A DNA stretch of 29,337 nt from a virus, in the IMG/VR virus record IMGVR_UViG_3300042261_000599, positions 1-29,337 of that record; one strand, given 5' to 3'. The position numbers were made by a program, and so were the translations under genes. Positions 6,191 through 29,067 of the stretch are shown in pieces. Below the pieces are notes generated by a model. That model was given only the letters and a program-made list of their open reading frames with translations. It searched no databases and was not told where the DNA came from. Every line of letters starts with the position of its first letter. Position 1 is the stretch's first letter.

Positions 6191-8332
6191 ATGCTGTTAG
6201 ACCAGTACGGCAAGGAAATAAAACACAAGAAGCCCATCCTGAACGAAGTGGCCGTGCAGACCGTCCGGGACCGGTACAGCAATTACCCGTCCCAGGGGCT
6301 GACGCCGCAACGCCTGGCGACTATTTTCAAGGAAGCGGACCAGGGAAATGTAGAGCGCCAGGCCGAGCTCTTCGAGGAGATGGAGGAGAAAGACCTCCAC
6401 CTGGGCGGGATCCTGCAGACGCGGAAGCTCGCTGTAACGGGCCTCAGTTGGGAAATCATGCCCGCGTCCGATTCGGCCGAAGACAAGAAGATCGCCGCGG
6501 CCGCCAAAGAGATGATCGAGTACCTGGAAAACTTCGAGGATGCCCTGCTGGATACCCTCGACGCCGTCGGCAAGGGGTTCGCCGTCCAGGAGATCATGTG
6601 GGATCTGGCTGAGGGGCTGATCTGGGCGAAAGAGATCAAGTGGATCCACCAGCGTCGCTTCACTTTCAACTCCGATACGGCGCTCCTGGAGTTCCCGCGC
6701 CTGCTGACCGACGCCGACCCGAGCCGCGGGGAAGAGCTGCCGCCGAATAAGTTCATCGTGCACAAGTACCGCGCGCGTTCCGGCGCGACCGTCCGGGGAG
6801 GACTGCTCCGGCCGTGCTCGTACATGTACCTGTTCAAGAATTACGACCTCAAGGACTGGTTGATCTTCAACGAGCTTTTCTCGGTCCCCATGCGCGTGGG
6901 CAAATACAAGACGGGGGCCACTCCGGAAGATAAAGAGGCCCTGAAGCGGGCGGTCTTCAACCTGGGTGTCGATGCCGCGGCGGTGATCTCGGACAACACG
7001 TTGATCGAACTCCTCGAGTCAAAGCTCCGGGGCGATTCCGCGACGTTCTCCGGGCTCGCTGAATATTGCGAACGCGGCATGACGAAGTCGGTCCTCGGCC
7101 ACAGCGGCAGTGCGGACGGCACGCCGGGCAAACTGGGGAACGACGACCAGGCGAAGCTGGTCCGCCAGGATCTGCTGGAGGCGGACGCCAAGGCGCTGCA
7201 GAAAACGGTGAAGTTCCAGCTCCTGAAGCCCTGGGTGGAATTCAATTACGGCCCGGGCGCCGGGATCCCGATTTTTAAGCTGCACTACGAAACGGAAGAG
7301 GATCTGGAAAAGGCCGCGAAGGTCATCTCGACCCTGGTAAAAGACGCCGGCTTTGAAGGCGTCCCGGAAGATCATATCCACGAGCGCTTCGGGATCCCGA
7401 AGGCGGAAAACGGCCAGAAGACCCTGAAGCCTCCGGCGGCCCCGAGCGCCCCCCCTCCCGGGAACGACACAACCGCAGCCCAAAGTGCAAACAAGGGCTA
7501 CGTCATGGTCAAAAACACGGCGACGGGTGATGAGGACTGGGTGCAGCTCTACATGGAGAGCCTTGGGCCAACCTTGCAGAATGTCCGCGCCACGGCCCTG
7601 GACGATATCCAGGAGTGGCTGACGTCGCTTTCCTTGCCGCCCTCGCAGGACGAGTTTATCGCCAGGATCGAGGAAATTATTGGGGCTTCCTTTGTTATCC
7701 TGAATCGTAAGGTTATTACGGATGCGATTACCGACGTCTACCTCTTTTTCCGCGGGAAAGCAGGCTTGGTCGACCTGGCCTTCGGCGGTCCGGATACCCG
7801 GGCGATCCGGTTCCTGTCGAAGCTCGACAACTTCTACGTCTCCAGTTACCTGAAAAACCCGGAAGCACGGTCGCTCATCACAAATTTTATCAAGGAACAG
7901 TATCTCAAAAATGGCGCCGGGCTGTTCGGCCGGGGAAAGCCGGAGGATATCCAGGCGTTCCAGAATCTCCTGTCACAGAAGCTCTCCGATATGGAAGCCT
8001 GGCAGATTAGGCGCATTGTGGACACCTCCGTACAGCGTGTCCGTAACTGGGCCACCGTTTCCCAGTTCCATGAAGCGGGGATTGCCGAATTGGAGATCTA
8101 CGAGCCGACCCATGACTGTGCCTTCTGCGTATCCATGAACGGCCGGGTGATCAGCGTCCCCGTTGCCCACGCCAAAATGGAAGCCCAGATGGCCATGACG
8201 CCGGAGGAATACGAAGAGGATCTGCGGAGTCTCACGCCCGGCATCGGGAACGTTGATGAGGTCGTTGGAGCGGGAATGCTGCCGCCCTATCACCCGCACT
8301 GTCACGGTACGGTGATCAGGAGGATAAAATGA
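6191..8332 (+). CDS. Portal protein (DUF935, Mu gp29) fused to a MuF head-morphogenesis domain (gp30)
   Basis: A 713-residue protein, about 200 longer than Mu gp29. Residues 1 to about 410 match the DUF935 portal that forms the DNA gate. After a Pro/Ala-rich linker at about 412-430, the C-terminal part (about 450-713) ends in a Mu gpF-like minor head domain, with HDCAFC at 641-646 and PPYHPHCHG at 698-706, the usual metal-site-like CxxC and HPxCHG pattern. No separate gp30 gene is present, so one polypeptide seems to do both jobs. I start at the ATG with GAGGGGAG seven bases upstream. An in-frame GTG 78 bases earlier has no good ribosome binding site. The 3' end shares ATGA with the next gene. 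Confidence 0.92.
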   Translation: MLLDQYGKEIKHKKPILNEVAVQTVRDRYSNYPSQGLTPQRLATIFKEADQGNVERQAELFEEMEEKDLHLGGILQTRKLAVTGLSWEIMPASDSAEDKKIAAAAKEMIEYLENFEDALLDTLDAVGKGFAVQEIMWDLAEGLIWAKEIKWIHQRRFTFNSDTALLEFPRLLTDADPSRGEELPPNKFIVHKYRARSGATVRGGLLRPCSYMYLFKNYDLKDWLIFNELFSVPMRVGKYKTGATPEDKEALKRAVFNLGVDAAAVISDNTLIELLESKLRGDSATFSGLAEYCERGMTKSVLGHSGSADGTPGKLGNDDQAKLVRQDLLEADAKALQKTVKFQLLKPWVEFNYGPGAGIPIFKLHYETEEDLEKAAKVISTLVKDAGFEGVPEDHIHERFGIPKAENGQKTLKPPAAPSAPPPGNDTTAAQSANKGYVMVKNTATGDEDWVQLYMESLGPTLQNVRATALDDIQEWLTSLSLPPSQDEFIARIEEIIGASFVILNRKVITDAITDVYLFFRGKAGLVDLAFGGPDTRAIRFLSKLDNFYVSSYLKNPEARSLITNFIKEQYLKNGAGLFGRGKPEDIQAFQNLLSQKLSDMEAWQIRRIVDTSVQRVRNWATVSQFHEAGIAELEIYEPTHDCAFCVSMNGRVISVPVAHAKMEAQMAMTPEEYEEDLRSLTPGIGNVDEVVGAGMLPPYHPHCHGTVIRRIK

Positions 8333-13253: not shown

Positions 13254-16200
13254 ATGGCAGAAATAACCGCGATGAGGAATAGCGTATTGCCTTTCCCGGT
13301 TTATGGAATGGCGTACACGATCACCTTTCCCATGCTTGATGCTGATGGTGATTTGGTAACAGGTGCGACCACGCCGGACAGCGAGATCAGCAAAAATGGG
13401 GACACCTTCGCCGACTGTACGAATGAGGCGACGGAAATTGCCACATCTTCTGGGATTTACTATCTCACCCTGACGGCGACCGAAATGACGGCGGACGTTG
13501 TTTCTCTTATTATCAAGAGCGCTACATCAGGGATGAAAACCACGGTGCTCACCTTGTACCCGGCGAAGCTCACCAAGGTTCACTCCGGTACGGCGACAGC
13601 GGGGGCGGCAGGTACAATCACCTTACAGAATACTTGCGTTCCTTTGGATGACGTTTACAACGGATGCCTCTTGTACACGACGGGCGGGACCGGACCGGAC
13701 CAGGCAAGACTCATTTCCGACTTTGTGGGCTCTACTTTGGTCGCTTCGGTAGGTGTAAACTTTGCGACCAACCCCGCAAACGGGACGACCTATGACATTT
13801 ATCTCACTCCCTACTCCAGCAATAGCCCTCTCTGTAACGTAACGGCCATTTCAGGAGATGCGACGGCGGCAGACAACTGCGAAGCACAGTTCGACGGGAC
13901 GGGGTATGTTGGCGGGTCAATCAAGCAAAAGGTCGATGTAGATACGATCAAGACTCAGACCGTAACCTGTGCGGCTGGCGTTACGGTTCGCGCCGATGTC
14001 GGGATGGCTTCGCAATGCACACCTCAGACGGGAGACGCTTACGCTATCGTGAATAACGGGGCGTACGGAAACAGTGCCATTAAGACACAGTTGGCCGACA
14101 TTCACGACACCGATCTTCCTGCGGTTAAATCTGATACAGGCAACATTAAGACAATGACAGACAAGATAGGGACGATTACGAATACTGGTGGAACCGCAAC
14201 TATCGGGGCTATTCTTGGTGACTTCGTAAATGCTTCGCTCGTTACTCGCGTGGCAGACCTTCATACGGATGTTGCCGATAACCATACGGACATAGGCACG
14301 GCCCTCGGATATATCGATACCGAAGTGGCCGCGATCAAGAGCGTCGTGGACAACATTCACGATACGGATCTGCCCGCGGTAAAGACTGATACGGCAGCAA
14401 TTCTCGCAGATACGAACGAGTTGCAGACCGACCTGGTCAATGGCGGCCGGGTGGACCTTCTGATCGATGCCATCAAGACCAAGACAGACACGCTCCCGGC
14501 TTCTCCTGCAGCAGTCGGTTCAGCCATGACCCTGACTGCAGCGTATGACGCTGCCAAAACGGCGGCGTCCCAGACCAGTGTCGATACAATCGACGGCATC
14601 GTGGACGCGATCCTGGAAGACACGGGAACAACCATCCCGGGCACGCTTTCGACAATCGCCGGCTACATCGATACCGAAGTCGCCGACATCCACACGGACA
14701 TCGGAACCGTGATCACAAATGTCGCTGATCTCCACACTGATGTGGGCACCGTCATTACCAACCTGGCCACGGTAGACGGCATCATCGACAACATTCACGA
14801 CACGGACCTCCCGTCCGTCAAGAGCGATACGGCCGCTATACTGGCGGATACGGGCACAGATGGCGTCGTCGTCGCCGCCGCAAGCAAGACCGGGTACGCC
14901 CTGAGTTCGGCGGGCGTCCAGGCCATCTGGGATGCACTCACCTCCGCCCTGACGACGGCCGGGTCAGTTGGAAAAAGGATCGTCGATTATCTGACCGGTG
15001 ATATATTCGCCCGGATCGGTGCGCCGGCGGGGGCATCTGTATCGGCAGATATAGCGGATCTTCACACTGACGTCGCCCATAACCACACGGACATCACGAC
15101 GGTAATCGGATACATCGACACGGAAGTCGCGGCCATCAAGGCCAAAACGGACAATCTGCCCGCAAGTCCTGCAGCAGTCGGCTCCGCCATGACCCTGACC
15201 GCGGCCTATGACGCTGCCAAGACCGCGGCCTCTCAGACCAGCGTCGACACGATCGACGGCATTGCGGACGCGATTCTAGAAGACACGGGCACAACCATTC
15301 CGGGCACACTTTCAACAATCGCCGGCTACATCGATACCGAAGTGGCCGACATCCACATGGACATCGGAACCGTGATCACGAATGTTGCGGACCTCCACAC
15401 CGACGTGGGCACCGTCATCACAAATCTGGCCACGGTAGACGGGATCATCGACAATATCCACGACACGGACCTCCCGGCGGTCAAGAGCGATACGGCGGCC
15501 ATCCTGAGTGACACAAACGAGCTACAGACTGACCTGGTCAACGGCGGTCGTCTTGACCTTCTGATCGACGCGATCAAAGCAAAGACCGACAACCTCCCGG
15601 CCTCTCCGGCGGCCGTTGGCTCGGCCATGACCCTGACCGCGGACTATGACGCAGCCAAGACGGCGGCCCAGGCGGGGGACAAGATGGACATAGTCGATAC
15701 CCCCAACGCAACGGCGGTAACAGCCATCCAAGACGGGCTCAGCACGTTCGACCCGGCCGCGGATACGGTCACTGTCGGCACAAATAACGACAAGACCGGC
15801 TACACTCTCAGCACGGCAGGGGTTTCTGCTGTACAGAGCGGCCTTTCGACCCTCACAGCCCAGCAGGTATGGGAGTATGCAACCAGGACTCTGAGCAGCT
15901 TCGGTACGCTGGCGTCGGAAATCTGGGGGAATGCGACCCGGACCCTGACGGCCATCTCGGATTCTGCTGGTGTGACGACGCTGCTATCGCGGATCAGTGC
16001 GGAAATCACCATCACCGGAGGCAAGGTGGACGTCAACGATAAGACGGGTTTTGTCCTGACTTCGGCCTATGATGCAGCCAAGACGGCGGCGCAGGCCGGG
16101 GGCAAGATGGACATAGTCGATACCCCCAACGCCACGGCGGTAACGGCTATCCAAGACGGGCTCAGCACATTCGACCCGGCCACGGATACGGTCACCGTCG

Positions 16201-16532
16201 GCACGATGCCCACGGCGGCAGAAATAAGGGAAGAGCTAGACACCAACAGCACGAAGCTGGCCCTCCTCGATGTAGCGGTGAGCACCCGCACAACAATGGG
16301 AACAGGCCGTATACCCTACGAGTACACCCTGACTGATACTATGACGGGCTTGCCCATCAGCGGCGCCACTGTACGGGCCAGCACTGACAACGCAGAGCAA
16401 AATGTGGTCGCCGAAGGAATAACCAACTCGTTCGGAAAGGTCATATTCCGGCTGGAACCGGGAAGATACTATTACTGGCGTTACGATGACGACCATCAGT
16501 ACAACAACCCGGATGTGGAGGACGTGGCATGA
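13254..16532 (+). CDS. Giant repeat-rich fibre-like virion protein
   Basis: A 1092-residue protein, the largest in the window. The N-terminal ~100 residues form a beta-rich domain (SVLPFPVYGMAYTITFPMLD...). From about residue 280 to 990 it is built of repeats: 14-residue units such as VADIHTDIGTVITN and VADLHTDVGTVITN, repeated NIHDTDLPAVKSDTAAIL and NLPASPAAVGSAMTLTAAYD segments, and a 221-residue superrepeat. These heptad-like units suggest a long trimeric coiled coil or shaft. The last ~80 residues (TLTDTMTGLPISGATVRAST ... LEPGRYYYWR) look like a carboxypeptidase-regulatory-like beta-sandwich. A head fibre or adhesin is the best guess. Its position among head-completion genes is not that of the Mu tail fibre. 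The start ATG follows the previous stop directly, and the 3' end shares ATGA with the next gene. Confidence 0.75.
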   Translation: MAEITAMRNSVLPFPVYGMAYTITFPMLDADGDLVTGATTPDSEISKNGDTFADCTNEATEIATSSGIYYLTLTATEMTADVVSLIIKSATSGMKTTVLTLYPAKLTKVHSGTATAGAAGTITLQNTCVPLDDVYNGCLLYTTGGTGPDQARLISDFVGSTLVASVGVNFATNPANGTTYDIYLTPYSSNSPLCNVTAISGDATAADNCEAQFDGTGYVGGSIKQKVDVDTIKTQTVTCAAGVTVRADVGMASQCTPQTGDAYAIVNNGAYGNSAIKTQLADIHDTDLPAVKSDTGNIKTMTDKIGTITNTGGTATIGAILGDFVNASLVTRVADLHTDVADNHTDIGTALGYIDTEVAAIKSVVDNIHDTDLPAVKTDTAAILADTNELQTDLVNGGRVDLLIDAIKTKTDTLPASPAAVGSAMTLTAAYDAAKTAASQTSVDTIDGIVDAILEDTGTTIPGTLSTIAGYIDTEVADIHTDIGTVITNVADLHTDVGTVITNLATVDGIIDNIHDTDLPSVKSDTAAILADTGTDGVVVAAASKTGYALSSAGVQAIWDALTSALTTAGSVGKRIVDYLTGDIFARIGAPAGASVSADIADLHTDVAHNHTDITTVIGYIDTEVAAIKAKTDNLPASPAAVGSAMTLTAAYDAAKTAASQTSVDTIDGIADAILEDTGTTIPGTLSTIAGYIDTEVADIHMDIGTVITNVADLHTDVGTVITNLATVDGIIDNIHDTDLPAVKSDTAAILSDTNELQTDLVNGGRLDLLIDAIKAKTDNLPASPAAVGSAMTLTADYDAAKTAAQAGDKMDIVDTPNATAVTAIQDGLSTFDPAADTVTVGTNNDKTGYTLSTAGVSAVQSGLSTLTAQQVWEYATRTLSSFGTLASEIWGNATRTLTAISDSAGVTTLLSRISAEITITGGKVDVNDKTGFVLTSAYDAAKTAAQAGGKMDIVDTPNATAVTAIQDGLSTFDPATDTVTVGTMPTAAEIREELDTNSTKLALLDVAVSTRTTMGTGRIPYEYTLTDTMTGLPISGATVRASTDNAEQNVVAEGITNSFGKVIFRLEPGRYYYWRYDDDHQYNNPDVEDVA
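14469..14848 (+). repeat. Long direct repeat, copy 1 (partner 15132-15511)
   Basis: About 380 bases here recur 663 bases downstream in the same frame. The amino acid sequence is nearly identical, while many third positions differ (for example GCAGCAGTCGGTTCAGCC versus GCAGCAGTCGGCTCCGCC). The unit encodes a KTD..LPASPAAVGSAMTLTAAYD segment through to the IHDTDLP segment. Confidence 0.9.
15132..15511 (+). repeat. Long direct repeat, copy 2 (partner 14469-14848)
   Basis: The second copy of the 221-residue superrepeat. Differences from copy 1 are mostly synonymous, so the repeat is held by protein-level selection and is old enough to have drifted. A third, partial copy of its beginning follows at about 15560-15669. 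Confidence 0.9.
15643..15781 (+). repeat. Second repeat family, copy 1 (partner 16066-16204)
   Basis: This stretch, encoding YDAAKTAAQAG.KMDIVDTPN through to FDPA.DTVTVGT, recurs 423 bases (141 codons) downstream at 16066-16204 with few changes, including the shared GACATAGTCGATACCCCCAA. The closeness suggests a more recent duplication than the 663-base pair. Confidence 0.88.
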
Positions 16533-20267: not shown

Positions 20268-22008
20268 GAACCTCGCTATTCAAATCACGGCCATCGACAT
20301 GCTCAGTTCCGTGGTCGAGCGAGTCAAAGGCCGTGTATTGAGTCTAGGGTCCAGTGCCGGGAAAGTCAAGCAGGATTTTGAGGAAATGACGACCGGCATC
20401 ACCCGCGGCCTCAAGGCGATTGCTGTCGGTGCGTATGCGCTGCAGAAGACGCTGCCGGGTATTCAGACTGCGGCGAACATGCAGGAGGCCATGCTCAAGG
20501 TCAAGTCGAACCTGGTTTCCAGCGCGAAGGATGCCGCGGATCTGGACCGGTCCATGAAATCCGTTAAATCGTCGGCTATTGCCATCAGTGCAAACGCGCC
20601 TTTCTCGGCGGAACAGGTGGTCAACATCGAGGCGGCTTTGCTCAAGGCCGGCGTCGCGATGGGAAACGTGGTCGGCCAAAAGGGGGCCGCTTGGGCGGCG
20701 ACGGCCCTGGCCACGGTGTCTGGGGAAGCCCCCGAAATGATCGGTGACTCCCTGGCTCGGATCGGGGATATGTTCAAATTCAAGGGCGATCAGTACGGGC
20801 AGTTTGCCGACTGGATCGCCCGCGTGGATGACGCCTCGTCATCGAGCGTGCCGGAACTCGTCTACGGCCTAAGGCTGGCCGGAAGCAGTGCGGCAGCGCT
20901 TAAGATATCGGCCAATGATACCGTTACCGCTCTCGGCGCCCTGGCGCCCCTGGGCGATCGCGCGGGATCCTCGCTTTCGAACTTCTACATTGCCGTTGCG
21001 GCAAAGAGAAAAGAATTGATTGCGGGCAACATCCGGCTGTTCGAAAACGGGCAGTTTGTCGGCATGGGACGGGCAATCGACATTTTGAAAGAAAAATTCG
21101 GGGCGATTAAAGACGACCAGCGGCGGCTCGGTCAGTTGATCAAAATTTTCGGGGAGGAAGGCGGGCGGGCGGCCAATCAGTTCATCAATTCCGAAAAAGG
21201 GTTCAGGGGGCTGAATGCTGAGGCGCAGAAGGCGGCGGATCTGGGAAAGAAGCTGTCGATCTGGGGCGAAGGATTCAATGCGGCGATGAAAAAGCTGGGC
21301 GGCACGGCCAAGACAACACTGGCCAGTCTGTTCGATCCGCTCCTGGCACCACTGCGATCGGTCCTGGACCTACTCAACACTGTTACCTCAAAAGTCGGAG
21401 AATTTGCTGAGAAACACAAGGCCCTCTCCGGCATGGCCTCCGGAGGGGCTCTGGCTGTGGCGGGTGGCGCGGGCCTTTACGGCCTTTACAGCCTGGCCAA
21501 GGGCGGCATGGCCGGAGCTCGGGTATTGAAGGGCATTGGCGGAATCAAGGGCCTATTGAAGGGCTTTGGCGGGACCGCCGCGGGTATTGCCGAGGGCAAG
21601 GCGATTGAAGCCGCCACAGGCGTGACACCGGTCTTCGTCACCAACTGGCCGGGCAATATGTCGGGCGGCGGCGCGGTGCAGACGGCGGCGGATCTGGCCG
21701 GAAAAGGCGGTTGGCTCGCAAAAATAGCCAAATCCGCGCCGATGCTCCTGGGCGGCAAACTGGCCCTCGCGGGGGGCGCCGGATATGCTGCCGGGACGGG
21801 GATCAACATGATGCTGGGCGGAATATCCAATTGGGCAACAGACGGAAAATACGGCGGTTCCGGCTGGCTGGGAGACATGGTCTTTGACTGGCTGCACGGC
21901 GAAGGTGTGAAGAACACCATCAACATCACCGTCGACAAGGACGGCCGCGTCATCGCCAACTCCGACAACATGTCCACCACGGTCAACGCGAAGCGGGGTA
22001 AATTCTGA
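20254..22008 (+). CDS. Tape measure protein (Mu gp42-like)
   Basis: A 584-residue protein that sets tail length and is ejected with the DNA. The N-terminus (NLAIQITAIDMLSSVVERVKGR) and the region around LPGIQTAANMQEAMLKVKSNL are typical of the phage minor tail protein or tape measure family. Ala/Gly-rich hydrophobic stretches at about 395-430 and 490-515 look membrane-active. At the usual ~0.15 nm per residue it would fit a short tail of roughly 90 nm. The start has AAAAGGGA upstream. The stop overlaps the next ATG by one base. Confidence 0.88.
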   Translation: MSNVMNLAIQITAIDMLSSVVERVKGRVLSLGSSAGKVKQDFEEMTTGITRGLKAIAVGAYALQKTLPGIQTAANMQEAMLKVKSNLVSSAKDAADLDRSMKSVKSSAIAISANAPFSAEQVVNIEAALLKAGVAMGNVVGQKGAAWAATALATVSGEAPEMIGDSLARIGDMFKFKGDQYGQFADWIARVDDASSSSVPELVYGLRLAGSSAAALKISANDTVTALGALAPLGDRAGSSLSNFYIAVAAKRKELIAGNIRLFENGQFVGMGRAIDILKEKFGAIKDDQRRLGQLIKIFGEEGGRAANQFINSEKGFRGLNAEAQKAADLGKKLSIWGEGFNAAMKKLGGTAKTTLASLFDPLLAPLRSVLDLLNTVTSKVGEFAEKHKALSGMASGGALAVAGGAGLYGLYSLAKGGMAGARVLKGIGGIKGLLKGFGGTAAGIAEGKAIEAATGVTPVFVTNWPGNMSGGGAVQTAADLAGKGGWLAKIAKSAPMLLGGKLALAGGAGYAAGTGINMMLGGISNWATDGKYGGSGWLGDMVFDWLHGEGVKNTINITVDKDGRVIANSDNMSTTVNAKRGKF

Positions 22009-23282
22009 TGGACGACACCTATCTCACCATCCTGGATCAGGAATTTACCCTGGAGACGGAAACGATCGAGGACAGTTTCGAATCGTCGATCGCCCGGCAC
22101 GAACTTCCCTACCGCGATGGGGCGCTCCTGGAAGACATGGGGCAGAAGGCCCGCACCGTCCGTATCCGCTGCTACTTTATCAACGAAAACTACGCCGCCC
22201 ACAAGGATCTGATCAATTACCTGGGATATACCGATGACCTGCACGAGCTGCAGCACCCGGAATACGGCCTGATTAAAGGCAAAATCGAATCCATTATCGT
22301 CCGCCACGACGACCGCCTGCAGACGGCGGAGGTGGATCTGACCTACGTGGAAAACCTGCGGGGCGTCATCGATCCTGAACCGGCGACGTCCGTCGCCGCC
22401 GATGTCGAGGCCGCCTTTGTTGACGGCCAGACTGAGCTGACCGAAGAAATCCGGCGGGATCTGGCAGAGCAACTTGGGGCGGATGCCGCCGGGATCCTCG
22501 ATACGGTCGTGGCAGCCGGGGCCGGTCTTTACGAGCAGATTTCCGGATTGTCCGGCGCTGCCCAGGCGTATGTCCGGGCGGCCGACACCTACGTCAAGAC
22601 CCTGGACGCCAAGCTTCGGGCCATCACGAATCCCGCGAACGGCCTCATCGCCGTCATCGACTACGCGGCCAACCTGCCGGGCTACGTGGCCGGTTCGATT
22701 GCCAACACGGTGGAACGCTATGCCATCCTGGCCGAGTCCGCCGTGTCGTTTCCGGCACGCCTGGTGGACAACTTTCATAACGCCGTTGACGAGATTGCCG
22801 ACGCACCGGGTACATACCAGAAATATGCAAAGATCTCCTCGGCCCAGCGCTCCGCGCACCTGGCGGCAACGATATTCAAGGCAGACAAGGAAGTCTCGGA
22901 TAGACAAAAACGGGCACAGGCAACCGCCTCGTTCAGTCCCCTGGGCCGCCGCCTGTCGCCGCAGGAAACTGACCAGATCCTGACCGTAAACGAGATGGAG
23001 CGGATCCTCGCGGCGGTCCGGACCCAGCTGCAGGAGGCGATAAACCTGTCCCGGAACATGCCGAGCCTGAGAAAAATAGCGGAGGCACTGACCGACCATG
23101 TCCGCCAGATGAAGCTGGAGCGACCGAAGGTCATTGCCGTCGAGGTGGACAACAGTCTGCCCCTGCACCTGGTCTGCCTGAAATACGGGATGACGACGGC
23201 GGACGCCGAGCAGCTCATGACCATCAACACGATCCGGCACCCGAATTATGTCACGGGGGAGGTCAACGTCTATGCCCGATAA
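22008..23282 (+). CDS. DNA circularization/tail protein N (Mu gp43-like)
   Basis: A 424-residue protein with the DNA_circ_N-type N-terminal domain: FESSIARHELPYRDGALLEDMGQKARTVR-like residues at about 24-52, then YGLIKGKIESI and an AEVDLTYVE strand at about 107-115. Despite the historic name, members are tail or baseplate proteins, part of the hub with gp44. The middle is helical. The C-terminus (PLHLVCLKYGMTTADAEQL, IRHPNYV) resembles a LysM-like ending. It overlaps the hub gene by 11 bases. Confidence 0.88.
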   Translation: MDDTYLTILDQEFTLETETIEDSFESSIARHELPYRDGALLEDMGQKARTVRIRCYFINENYAAHKDLINYLGYTDDLHELQHPEYGLIKGKIESIIVRHDDRLQTAEVDLTYVENLRGVIDPEPATSVAADVEAAFVDGQTELTEEIRRDLAEQLGADAAGILDTVVAAGAGLYEQISGLSGAAQAYVRAADTYVKTLDAKLRAITNPANGLIAVIDYAANLPGYVAGSIANTVERYAILAESAVSFPARLVDNFHNAVDEIADAPGTYQKYAKISSAQRSAHLAATIFKADKEVSDRQKRAQATASFSPLGRRLSPQETDQILTVNEMERILAAVRTQLQEAINLSRNMPSLRKIAEALTDHVRQMKLERPKVIAVEVDNSLPLHLVCLKYGMTTADAEQLMTINTIRHPNYVTGEVNVYAR

Positions 23283-24291
23283 GATCTCCCTTCTGATCGG
23301 CGGGAAGAAGGTTGAAAACTTCAAGTCCTACAGTATCGAGGCGGATCTCTACACGGCCGACGACGCCTTCTCCCTGGAGTTGTCCAATCCCGGCACAAAG
23401 ATCAGCGCCGGGGCGCGCTGCGAGCTGTACGTCAACGACCGGCTGGTCTTGACGGGGATCGCCGATATGGTGGACAAGGGCGGCGACAAGTCCGGCACAA
23501 CGCTCAGGCTGGAAGGCCGGGACCTCATGGGCCTTTTGGTGGATTCCTACTGCGAGGAGTTTATCGATCTGCAGGGCATGACCCTCAAGGCGCTGACCGA
23601 GCGACTCATGAAGACGGTGCCCTATATAAACCGCAAGGCCGTGCAGTACCAGTCCGGCACCCTGAAGCGCATCGATACGGCCCGGAATCATACCAAGATC
23701 GAACCGGGCCAGACGGTCTTCGATGTGCTGAAGACCTACGCCCTCTCCCGGGGACTCATGTTCTTTGCCCTGGAAAACGGCACGTTCGTCTTCGGGCGGC
23801 CGAAAACCGGCGGTGCGCCGCTCTACCACCTGATCCGGAGAAAGAGCGATCCGCGGGAAAACAACATCGAATCGGGGAACCTATCGGACAACATCGCCCG
23901 GCGTTACAGCAAGATCGTTGTCACGGGCCAGCAGCAGGGCGCGGACGATATTGCCCCGGAAGACATCAACACGCCCCCGACAACGGTGACGGATCCGACT
24001 TTTCCCTTTTACAAGCCGTACTATGAAACGGATCAGAACGATGCCCTGAGCCCGATGCGGCACGCCCGGATGCGTCTGGAGCAGATGAAATTCGAGGGGT
24101 TTCAGCTCAAATACACGGTGCCCTTCCATAGCCAGAACGGGGAGCCTTGGCGGATCAACGAGATCTGCCACGTGATTGACGAGGATCTGGACGTGGACGG
24201 CGATTACCTCATCTACGGTCGCACCTTCCGGTTGGACAAAAGCGGGAGTTATACGGAGTTGAAACTGAGCTATCCGGGGGTGGTTCAATGA
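23272..24291 (+). CDS. Baseplate hub protein P (Mu gp44-like)
   Basis: A 339-residue hub protein of the Mu gp44/T4 gp27 class. The N-terminus has two barrel-like domains (KISLLIGGKKVENFKSYSIE, then FSLELSNPGTKISAGARCEL). RLEGRDLMGLLVDSYC and the KIVVTGQQQG strand also fit. It forms the trimeric ring between tail tube and spike. I start at the ATG ten bases after GGGGAGG rather than at an in-frame ATG eight codons earlier. The last seven bases are overlapped by the minus-strand gene that follows. Confidence 0.88.
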   Translation: MPDKISLLIGGKKVENFKSYSIEADLYTADDAFSLELSNPGTKISAGARCELYVNDRLVLTGIADMVDKGGDKSGTTLRLEGRDLMGLLVDSYCEEFIDLQGMTLKALTERLMKTVPYINRKAVQYQSGTLKRIDTARNHTKIEPGQTVFDVLKTYALSRGLMFFALENGTFVFGRPKTGGAPLYHLIRRKSDPRENNIESGNLSDNIARRYSKIVVTGQQQGADDIAPEDINTPPTTVTDPTFPFYKPYYETDQNDALSPMRHARMRLEQMKFEGFQLKYTVPFHSQNGEPWRINEICHVIDEDLDVDGDYLIYGRTFRLDKSGSYTELKLSYPGVVQ

Positions 24292-24629
24292 GGAGCGGCA
24301 ACGGCCTTGTAGCGGTCATTGAAAGGGCTTATTCGATCGGGCTCCAGGGTTGTCCGTTCGGATGCGCTGCAACGGCCGCGCCGGACGTCTCGCAGGAAGC
24401 GGAGGGATGCGGCACTGTCGGCCTCGATGTCGATGGTTTTGGTTCCAAGATCAAAGGTCATTACCTTGCCGGTTATAGATACGACGCGCTGGGCCTCCAG
24501 GGCAATGACCGACGGCCGATCCGCCGGCACGGACAAAAACGGCACGGCGCTCCGGTAACAGGGATACTCCCCGGCCGAAACCGTGCAGGCAATCAGAAGA
24601 ATAACGAAAGCGGCGACAAAGGTTTTCAT
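24285..24629 (-). CDS. Antisense putative lipoprotein or secreted protein (putative moron)
   Basis: A 114-residue protein encoded on the minus strand in the 352-base gap between gp44 and gp45. The N-terminus is an excellent signal sequence: MKTF, a hydrophobic core to residue 13, and LIAC at 12-15, a lipobox that would lipidate Cys15. Cleavage after VSA (17-19) by ordinary signal peptidase is an alternative. The mature part is a small alpha/beta-like domain with Cys24 and Cys87. A near-consensus promoter lies directly upstream and places transcription start at the ATG, so the mRNA should be leaderless. No + strand phage gene fits the gap. The product would reach the envelope from an integrated prophage, as superinfection-exclusion or conversion proteins do. 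The family was not recognised. Confidence 0.72.
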   Translation of the reverse strand: MKTFVAAFVILLIACTVSAGEYPCYRSAVPFLSVPADRPSVIALEAQRVVSITGKVMTFDLGTKTIDIEADSAASLRFLRDVRRGRCSASERTTLEPDRISPFNDRYKAVAAPH

Positions 24630-24635
24630 GTGAGG

Positions 24636-24664
24636 ATTATAGGATGATCCGGGCCAGAATTCAA
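24636..24664 (-). promoter_or_regulatory. Sigma-70-type promoter for the antisense lipoprotein gene
   Basis: Read on the minus strand, TTGAAT (24664-24659) and TATAAT (24641-24636) are separated by exactly 17 bases. The -10 is perfect and the -35 matches TTGA of the consensus. The expected start point, about seven bases on, is at or next to the A of the ATG at 24629. The promoter overlaps the ribosome binding site and start of the gp45 gene on the other strand. Confidence 0.75.
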
Positions 24665-25132
24665 CAGGTTATCGAGGGCGCAATCAAACGTTTCAATGCG
24701 CTCGGCCGGGCGAACGAGACGATCACGGACCGGGAATGCTTCCAGCATTACGGCTTTACCTCACGGCCCCTGGAGGGCGCGGAGGCTGTCCTGATCGCAA
24801 ACGGCAACCACATCGTCATGATCGCCGAGGATGACCGCCGGTACCGTATCGCCATCGAGGCGGGCGAGGTCTGCCTTTACACGGACGAGGGAGATCATAT
24901 CCGGTTCAAGCGCGGGAAGGAGATCTACATCCAGAGCGGTAATAAGTTGACAGCAGAGATCGCCAACGACGTTGCGGTCACCACGAAACGGATCGCCCTG
25001 ACGGCCTCCGAATCGATCACACTGACGTCGCCCAGCGTGACGGTTGACGGCGCCCTGTCCGCCACCGGGAATGTCACGTCACAGGGAAGTATTACGGATA
25101 CGACAGGCAATACCAACCACCACAGCCACTAG
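24644..25132 (+). CDS. Baseplate spike protein (Mu gp45/gpV-like)
   Basis: A 162-residue membrane-piercing spike. The N-terminal region (LGRANETITDRECFQHYGFTS) and OB-fold part with GAEAVLIANGNHIVMIAEDD match Mu gp45. The C-terminal part is a beta-helix of short repeating strands (ITLTSPSVTVDGALSATGNV). It ends TNHHSH, the His-x-His arrangement that in P2 gpV and related spikes binds a metal ion at the needle tip. GAGGA and the start lie within the promoter of the divergent antisense gene. Confidence 0.9.
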   Translation: MIRARIQQVIEGAIKRFNALGRANETITDRECFQHYGFTSRPLEGAEAVLIANGNHIVMIAEDDRRYRIAIEAGEVCLYTDEGDHIRFKRGKEIYIQSGNKLTAEIANDVAVTTKRIALTASESITLTSPSVTVDGALSATGNVTSQGSITDTTGNTNHHSH

Positions 25133-28278: not shown

Positions 28279-29067
28279 ATGAAAAGTTTTCTGGCGTACA
28301 TGGGCGGTAAATCTCTGCTTGCGAACAAAATCATACCGCGGATCCCGGCTCACCATTGTTACTGCGAAGTGTTTACTGGGGCCTCATGGCTGCTCTTTAA
28401 GAAGGAAGAATCACCCGTCGAAATTATAAACGACATCAATTCAGACCTGGTCACGCTTTACCGGGTAATCCAGAACCATTTGGACGAGTTCATGCGTTAT
28501 CTAAGATGGATACTGGTTGCGAGGCAAGAATTTGATCGCTTTAAGGCTGAGAATCCGGAGACGTTGACGGACATTCAGCGGGCGGTCAGGTTTTATTTCT
28601 TATTGAAATGTGGATATGGGGCAAAGATAAATTCGCCGGTGTTTAATATTGTGACCACGAGCCGACCGCGACTGAATCTGTTGCGCATCGAGGAGGAGCT
28701 GTCAGCCGTTCATTTAAGGCTGTGCCAAGTGTATATCGAGAATAAGGGCTATCAGAACGTTATTCAGCGGTTTGACAAACCGGATACGTTTTTTTATCTG
28801 GACCCACCCTATTACGGTTGCGAGGATTACTATGGGGCGGGGATATTCTCTAAGGAGGACTTCACCACGCTTAACGGCCTGCTGCGGGCGATTAGTGGCA
28901 AGTTCATTCTTTCAATCAACGACGTGCCCGAGATTAGATCATTGTTCAAGGACTTCATTATAGCAACCGTCGATACGTCATACAGCTCGGCAGGCGCAAA
29001 TAAAAAGAAGCGCGTTACAGAGCTGCTGATTATGAATTACGGTCCGAAAGGCCGGTTGGTAGGGTAA
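28279..29067 (+). CDS. Dam-type DNA N6-adenine methyltransferase
   Basis: A 262-residue MT-A70-unrelated, Dam/D12-class methyltransferase. YMGGKSLL at 7-14 and EVFTGAS at 30-36 correspond to the N-terminal and AdoMet-binding motifs. DPPYYG at 175-180 is the catalytic motif IV. The length and the motif order fit the D12 class, with GATC as the usual target. It is A+T-richer than the structural genes. It takes the right-end position that mom holds in Mu and probably modifies phage DNA against restriction or affects expression. AGGAGGAG precedes the ATG, and a long terminator follows. Confidence 0.9.
   Translation: MKSFLAYMGGKSLLANKIIPRIPAHHCYCEVFTGASWLLFKKEESPVEIINDINSDLVTLYRVIQNHLDEFMRYLRWILVARQEFDRFKAENPETLTDIQRAVRFYFLLKCGYGAKINSPVFNIVTTSRPRLNLLRIEEELSAVHLRLCQVYIENKGYQNVIQRFDKPDTFFYLDPPYYGCEDYYGAGIFSKEDFTTLNGLLRAISGKFILSINDVPEIRSLFKDFIIATVDTSYSSAGANKKKRVTELLIMNYGPKGRLVG

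What the first reader, a model, noticed from the sequence alone, without database searches (positions are those of the whole stretch)
24285..24629. Antisense lipoprotein-like gene with its own near-perfect promoter inside the baseplate operon
The sequence shows a minus-strand gene with a lipobox signal peptide filling a gap that Mu lacks. A TTGAAT-17-TATAAT promoter sits immediately upstream. Phage lipoproteins of this size are known to block receptors or DNA entry (superinfection exclusion). It is inferred that this gene is expressed in the lysogen while the late operon is silent.
Basis: partly seen in the sequence, partly recalled or inferred. Interest (0 to 1): 0.75.

Follow-up and report, generated by a model that had tools for sequence, protein, structure and literature searches.

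The report
Secreted prophage gene hidden antisense
A Mu-like phage carries, backwards inside its tail-baseplate genes, a small independently promoted gene for a protein exported out of the cytoplasm, whose relatives in bacterial chromosomes sit next to anti-phage restriction systems; this suggests, but does not prove, that it helps a dormant phage protect its host from other phages.

Summary
In detail: 24285-24629 (minus strand) is a real gene. Seven distinct Mu-like phages or prophages carry an intact homolog (42-53% identical to the window's protein) on the minus strand at exactly the gp44-gp45 (hub-spike) junction. Substitutions fall at minus-strand third positions (dN/dS 0.22-0.42). In relatives without the gene, gp44 and gp45 overlap by 4 bp.

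The promoter also holds. All carriers keep TTGAAT-like -35, 17 bp, TATAAT-like -10. The -35 comes free with gp45 codons; the -10 is seen only in carriers. In six of seven the -10 ends 6 nt before the ATG, predicting a leaderless mRNA.

'Lipoprotein' is not supported. The lipobox (C15) is unique to the window; all ten homologs have an ordinary Sec signal peptide and nine share a cysteine pair, indicating a soluble, disulfide-bonded periplasmic protein, modelled as an OB-like barrel. No Pfam, NCBIfam, PHROG or PADLOC family matches.

New: homologs also occur in three Nitrospirota chromosomes without nearby phage genes. All lie beside restriction-modification genes, same strand, two independent loci: weak support for anti-phage function.

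Best reading: a lysogen-expressed periplasmic moron, probably envelope-level exclusion (about 0.45); function unproven. Closest architectural precedent: minus-strand Tab gene of Mu-like phage JBD26.

The parts
24285..24629 (-). Antisense moron gene, 114 aa, Sec-secreted protein of an unnamed family
   Evidence: ORF; homologs at the same junction in six other phages; third-position divergence and dN/dS
24573..24629 (-). Signal peptide, residues 1-19 (predicted SPase I cut VSA|GEYP)
   Evidence: Hydrophobic core and small residues at -3/-1 in all ten homologs; inferred by inspection, no dedicated predictor run
24585..24596 (-).
   Evidence: Regex over ten homologs: 1 of 10
24558..24560 (-). Cys24, partner of Cys87 in a predicted disulfide
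   Evidence: Both Cys present in nine of ten homologs and both absent in L004
24369..24371 (-). Cys87, partner of Cys24
   Evidence: As above
24300..24512 (-). Compact beta domain, residues 40-110, order b-b-b-b-a-b-b, read as an OB-like barrel
   Evidence: AlphaFold2 pLDDT 81.4 and 83.7, domain about 92-95; Foldseek matches to OB proteins (RuvA, S1/eIF2-alpha, Lys/AspRS) are weak, E >= 0.037, TM about 0.39
24636..24664 (-). Promoter TTGAAT-17-TATAAT; -35 inside gp45 codons, -10 between the two genes; predicted +1 on the A of the ATG
   Evidence: same 17-nt spacer in 7/7 carriers and 6-nt -10-to-ATG distance in 6/7; -10 absent in 9/9 non-carriers
24632..24635 (+). GAGG, likely Shine-Dalgarno of gp45, on the other strand of the promoter/start region
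   Evidence: Sequence; 8 nt before the gp45 ATG
24288..24647 (+). Plus-strand frame, 119 codons, overlapping the gp44 stop (ATGA) and the gp45 start (ATGA); candidate bridging frame, not a conserved protein
23248..24291 (+). gp44-like baseplate hub (Mu gpP family), left neighbour
   Evidence: PF21683 E 3.5e-16, PHROG 177 E 9e-70
24644..25132 (+). gp45-like spike / baseplate protein, right neighbour
   Evidence: PF06890 E 1e-11

Best explanation
The feature is a moron: a single independently transcribed gene inserted at the ATGA stop/start overlap of the hub and spike genes of a family of Mu-like phages. SHOWN by sequence: real protein-coding gene on the minus strand; the same site in seven phages; Sec-type signal peptide in all ten homologs; co-conserved cysteine pair; conserved promoter layout; homologs in Nitrospirota chromosomes next to restriction-modification genes. 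INFERRED: in the lysogen host RNA polymerase reads it from its own sigma70-type promoter while the late operon is silent; the mRNA begins at or next to the AUG and is translated leaderless, as lambda cI is; the product is exported, cut by signal peptidase I and folds in the periplasm as a small disulfide-bonded OB-like domain; there it most likely interferes with entry of other phages (envelope-level superinfection exclusion). On induction, late transcription through the gene on the opposite strand would shut it off.
For: Homologs at the same junction and strand in L004, L010, L079, L080/L081, L083, L088; precise empty sites in L001, L002, L003, L007. Purifying selection on the minus frame. 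Signal peptide and cysteine pair. Promoter layout 7/7, -10 in 0/9 non-carriers, 6-nt -10-to-ATG in 6/7. Temperate Mu-like context. Chromosomal homologs: c086 and c089 downstream of a type IIG restriction-modification gene, c090 downstream of a type II methyltransferase and a BglII-like endonuclease, all same strand, c086 and c090 only 14 and 11 nt after the preceding gene. With about 7 and 14 methyltransferase loci per genome, a random gene would lie this near one about 2% of the time, so about 4e-4 for two independent loci. Precedents: Tab, minus strand with own promoter, in Mu-like JBD26 (PMC10884400); T4 Spackle, periplasmic with a disulfide, blocks the tail-spike lysozyme (PMC7677548).
Against: No expression or exclusion data. 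Restriction-modification adjacency is only two independent loci and accessory genes cluster anyway. No sequence or convincing structural link to any known exclusion protein. No terminator was found just after the gene, which a classical moron would have. The sigma70 consensus was judged by E. coli rules while the likely host is Nitrospirota.
Confidence: 0.45

Rival explanations
1. Lysogenic conversion gene that benefits the host envelope (stress, peptidoglycan or metal handling) without excluding phages; the chromosomal copies are ordinary host genes that happen to lie in accessory islands.
For: Chromosomal homologs are complete and under purifying selection (dN/dS 0.22-0.30); small periplasmic OB-fold proteins with stress roles exist in bacteria (own knowledge: the BOF/YgiW group).
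Against: The chromosomal copies are rare (3 genomes with a non-phage copy among 396 Nitrospirota genomes sampled) and both independent loci are restriction-modification neighbourhoods; no Pfam match to BOF.
Confidence: 0.3
2. Superinfection-excluding lipoprotein.
For: LIAC at residues 12-15 with Lys2 is a formal lipobox in the window.
Against: The Cys is absent at that place in the other nine homologs, which keep an SPase-I type site.
Confidence: 0.07
3. Lytic-phase function (for example lysis timing or envelope work late in infection), expressed from the same promoter on replicating phage DNA.
For: The promoter would also be available on replicating phage DNA; periplasmic phage proteins such as T4 Spackle and the anti-holin RI act in the lytic phase (the latter from own knowledge).
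Against: Transcription of the gene opposes the late operon, and the gene is missing from most related phages, so it is dispensable for growth.
Confidence: 0.1
4. The locus works mainly as an antisense RNA that damps leaky gp44/late expression in the lysogen.
For: No terminator close downstream, so the transcript may run antisense into gp44.
Against: The protein is conserved with dN/dS well below 1 and homologs exist where there is no gp44.
Confidence: 0.04
5. Shadow ORF: the true gene is the plus-strand frame 24288-24647, coupled by ATGA overlaps to gp44 and gp45.
For: The frame is open in the mirror register in 6/7 carriers and fits both overlaps.
Against: Substitutions concentrate at minus-strand third positions, the plus frame has dN/dS about 1.0-1.7, it has no family hit, and chromosomal homologs exist only as the minus product.
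Confidence: 0.02

Closest known systems
Tab / anti-Tab of Pseudomonas Mu-like phage JBD26 (PMC10884400)
   Same: Small moron on the minus strand inside the late operon of a Mu-like phage, with its own promoter, transcribed from the prophage
   Different: Tab lies between the terminase genes, is 83 aa, blocks tail assembly of invading phages and has a plus-strand anti-Tab partner; this gene lies between hub and spike, encodes a secreted protein, and has no conserved partner protein
T4 Spackle, gp61.3 (PMC7677548)
   Same: Small phage protein exported to the periplasm, disulfide-bonded, superinfection exclusion at the tail-spike stage
   Different: Spackle is an alpha-helical bundle, an early lytic gene of a virulent phage; here a beta-rich barrel is predicted from a temperate phage. 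No sequence relation
Superinfection-exclusion lipoproteins such as Ltp of TP-J34 (PMC3952083)
   Same: Prophage-encoded and secreted
   Different: These are true lipoproteins of Gram-positive hosts; the lipobox here is not conserved
Leaderless lambda cI (PMC4965119)
   Same: Prophage gene whose mRNA begins at the AUG; from own knowledge the PRM -10 also ends 6 nt before the ATG
   Different: cI is the repressor; this gene is not regulatory as far as can be seen, and its 5' end is predicted, not mapped

Membership tests
Moron (as defined in PMC4378225: a coding unit with promoter and terminator inserted between two genes adjacent in relatives) | Inserted between two genes that are adjacent in related phages | tested here: met
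   gp44 and gp45 overlap by 4 bp in L001, L002, L003, L007; carriers have 356-424 nt in between
Moron | Own promoter | tested here: met
   Predicted and conserved in 7/7 carriers, -10 absent in 9/9 non-carriers; not mapped by experiment
Moron | Own terminator | tested here: not met
   No minus-strand terminator-like site close after the gene; the nearest downstream one, 23420-23403, lies about 860 nt on and such sites are no commoner than chance
Moron | Base composition unlike its neighbours | tested here: not met
   GC 0.59 against 0.571 for the window
Moron | Expressed from the repressed prophage | not testable with these tools
   Needs RNA from a lysogen
Bacterial lipoprotein | Conserved lipobox cysteine | tested here: not met
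   1 of 10 homologs
Tab (tail assembly blocker) | Sequence relation to Tab and position between terminase genes with anti-Tab | tested here: not met
   Position differs and no conserved plus-strand partner protein; sequence not compared with Tab itself; no PADLOC hit
T4 Spackle | Alpha-helical bundle | tested here: not met
   Beta-rich model
Superinfection-exclusion protein (functional class) | Blocks infection of the lysogen by other phages | not testable with these tools
   No phenotype data; only indirect support from the chromosomal restriction-modification neighbourhood
OB-fold | Five-stranded barrel with helix between strands 3 and 4 | tested here: inconclusive
   Strand-helix order fits if 40-53 is one bent strand; Foldseek matches are OB proteins but weak, E >= 0.037, TM about 0.39
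BOF / YgiW | Pfam BOF profile match | tested here: not met
   No such hit in Pfam scans of all ten homologs

The most novel reading that the evidence does not exclude
A previously unnamed family of secreted, disulfide-bonded anti-phage proteins is shared between restriction-modification operons of Nitrospirota chromosomes and Mu-like prophages. In the phage the gene is packed antisense between the hub and spike genes, with a leaderless promoter overlapping the gp45 start, is turned off automatically by late transcription, and its opposite strand is kept free of stops so that ribosomes can still pass from gp44 to gp45 and keep hub and spike translation coupled.
Probability: 0.15. Interest if true: 0.72.

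Novelty: new variant of a known kind. Interest (0 to 1): 0.5.

Why it matters
If exclusion is confirmed, this would be an unnamed family of periplasmic anti-phage proteins, used both by prophages and by chromosomal restriction-modification operons, in a phylum (Nitrospirota) for which my literature search turned up no Mu-like phage work. It would also be a clear example of how a temperate phage fits a lysogen-only gene into an essential late operon without breaking it: precise insertion at a stop/start overlap, a promoter sharing bases with the neighbour's start region, a leaderless message, and an opposite strand that stays open. These are testable with standard strand-specific transcript mapping and reporter assays.

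Tried and rejected
Searches that found nothing: viral contigs and phage records with the single window protein, and phage records with the L004 protein; blastn of gp44 in phage records; PDB sequence profile; Pfam, NCBIfam, PHROGs and PADLOC for the family (best hits such as LSM12, acylphosphatase or defensin propeptide are sub-threshold and inconsistent). Rejected: the plus-strand frame as the real gene; lipoprotein. Considered and left open: the plus frame as a bridging frame. Its openness is unlikely from codon usage (six carriers, product about 9e-7 given the proteins, about 1e-4 from sliding windows of other genes), but the copies are related, one chromosomal copy (c086) is also open although it has no bridging role, the shared flank lengths fix the frame, and L004 breaks the mirror frame, with another frame open (probability 0.3). 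Direction of transfer: the tree cannot tell phage-to-host from host-to-phage. Other minus-strand genes at this junction: none convincing in more distant gp45 relatives; where gp44 and gp45 were cleanly identified the junction is tight. Wider genome sampling gave no further homologs.

Full report
WHAT IS THERE. The minus-strand frame 24285-24629 runs from ATG to TGA, 114 codons. It fills the space between gp44, a Mu-type baseplate hub (PF21683, PHROG 177), and gp45 (PF06890), with gp46 (PF07409), baseplate J (PF04865) and gp48 (PF10076) following. The window is a whole 29,337-base virus record holding the structural half of a Mu-like phage.

IS IT A GENE. Close gp45 relatives were fetched and their gp44-gp45 junctions read. 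Most have gp44 and gp45 overlapping or nearly abutting. L004 and L010 carry a homologous protein on the minus strand at this same place. Profile searches added L079, L080/L081, the prophage L083 in a Nitrospirota MAG contig and L088. All seven distinct phage copies are intact, on the minus strand, at the same junction. Across all ten homologs, including three chromosomal ones, differences pile up at the third codon position of the minus frame (for example window/L088: 42, 39, 74 at positions 1, 2, 3). dN/dS is 0.22-0.42 in the minus frame and about 1.0-1.7 in the mirrored plus frame. The minus gene is therefore the real one.

THE INSERTION. In phages without the gene the sequence reads gp44...CAATGATCCGG...gp45, with ATGA shared by the gp44 stop and the gp45 start (L001). 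In the window it reads gp44...CAATGA [356 nt] ATGATCCGG. The insert thus lies between two ATGA copies and leaves both neighbours whole.

THE PROMOTER. Aligned on the gp45 start, all seven carriers show a TTGAAT-, TTGTAT- or TTGAAA-like -35, a 17-nt spacer and a TATAAT-, TATGAT-, TATATT-, TATGCT- or CATAAT-like -10. Some non-carriers also have the -35, because it comes from gp45 Ile-Gln codons; none of nine has the -10. The gene-specific part is therefore the -10. In six of seven the -10 ends exactly 6 nt before the ATG, so transcription should start on or next to the A of the ATG and give a leaderless mRNA. L004 instead has a longer leader with AGGAG before the ATG. Leaderless translation is established for lambda cI (PMC4965119); that PRM has the same 6-nt distance is from my own knowledge. 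On the other strand the same 15 nt hold the likely gp45 Shine-Dalgarno (GAGG, 24632-24635). By consensus scan alone the promoter would not be significant (5 found, 4.7 expected); the comparison makes it so.

THE PROTEIN. All ten homologs begin with a Sec signal peptide. A lipobox exists only in the window (LIAC, residues 12-15), while small residues at -3/-1 before a W/G/E/N-x-P(C) start are general. Cys24 and Cys87 occur together in nine members and are both missing in L004, as expected for a disulfide. AlphaFold2 models from 5 and 10 sequences agree on b-b-b-b-a-b-b for residues 40-110 at pLDDT about 92-95. Foldseek's matches are largely OB-fold proteins (RuvA, S1/eIF2-alpha, Lys- and Asp-tRNA synthetases), but with E >= 0.037 and TM about 0.39, so the fold name is tentative. 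No library family matches.

CHROMOSOMAL RELATIVES. Of 396 Nitrospirota genomes sampled, four have the family. G001 holds both a prophage copy (L083) and a second copy elsewhere; G363 holds a prophage copy (L088); G301 and G269 hold a copy with no phage genes nearby. The non-phage copies lie among housekeeping genes (purA and serA-like; parA/parB-like; fatty-acid synthesis), named by inspection of the translations. All are near restriction-modification genes: a type IIG enzyme (PADLOC E 6e-172 in L091, 4e-130 in L092, apparently the same locus in related genomes) and a type II methyltransferase plus BglII-like endonuclease (L093). All these genes are on the strand of the homolog, which follows the previous gene by 14 nt (c086) and 11 nt (c090). 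With about 7 and 14 methyltransferase loci in the two genomes, I estimate about 2% per locus and about 4e-4 for both, without correcting for clustering of accessory genes. The tree puts the chromosomal copies together (84/84) but cannot say which way the gene moved.

TEMPERATE CONTEXT. L083 lies in a contig where a Mu-type transposase gene (PF09299) and an AAA ATPase gene mark the left end of the phage, and the right end, with a D12 adenine methyltransferase, meets host glnB. The window also ends with a D12 methyltransferase, so it seems to reach close to the phage's right end.

HOW IT MOST LIKELY WORKS. Shown: gene, site, secretion signal, cysteine pair, promoter layout, neighbourhood of relatives. 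Inferred: expression in the lysogen, leaderless translation, periplasmic disulfide-bonded product, and envelope-level exclusion of other phages, switched off by opposing late transcription on induction. Precedents are Tab of JBD26, also minus strand with its own promoter in a Mu-like late operon (PMC10884400), and T4 Spackle, a periplasmic disulfide protein that inhibits the tail-spike lysozyme (PMC7677548). I hold the exclusion step at about 0.45, because no phenotype exists and the restriction-modification link rests on two loci.

THE PLUS-STRAND FRAME. 24288-24647 overlaps the gp44 stop and the gp45 start by four bases each. Its protein is not conserved. It is nevertheless open in the mirror register in six of seven carriers, less expected from codon usage, which could reflect a need for ribosomes to cross the insert so that gp45 stays coupled to gp44. 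Relatedness, a shared frame and one open chromosomal copy weaken this; it stays a lead.

VERDICT. The family and its chromosomal relatives are, as far as these libraries show, undescribed. Kind: a known kind (antisense moron), with a new protein family and an unusual packing.

Noticed in passing
window 28279-29064 (+): D12-class adenine DNA methyltransferase near the right end of the record; the prophage L083 has one at its right end beside host glnB.
   Followed up: partly
window 13254-16532 (+): 1092-aa frame between head and tail genes with no PHROG or Pfam match.
   Followed up: partly
window 21486-23324 (-): 612-aa antisense frame (TTG start) opposite tape measure and gp43; no Pfam match, probably a shadow frame.
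   Followed up: partly
window 24288-24647 (+): Plus-strand frame with ATGA overlaps at both ends, open in 6/7 carriers in the mirror register; possible bridging frame for gp44-gp45 translation.
   Followed up: partly
L093:6865-7506 and 7583-8239: Two similar unknown proteins (213 and 218 aa), each ending in a hydrophobic stretch, between a type II restriction-modification pair and the chromosomal homolog; no Pfam or PADLOC match.
   Followed up: no
L091:3857-5881: Two unknown proteins (303 and 356 aa) between a type IIG restriction-modification gene and the chromosomal homolog; the 303-aa one recurs in L092.
   Followed up: no
L004:2229-2302: The L004 copy has a longer leader with short repeats (GGCTATGGGC / GGCCATAGGC) and a Shine-Dalgarno instead of the leaderless arrangement, and lacks both paired cysteines.
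   Followed up: no
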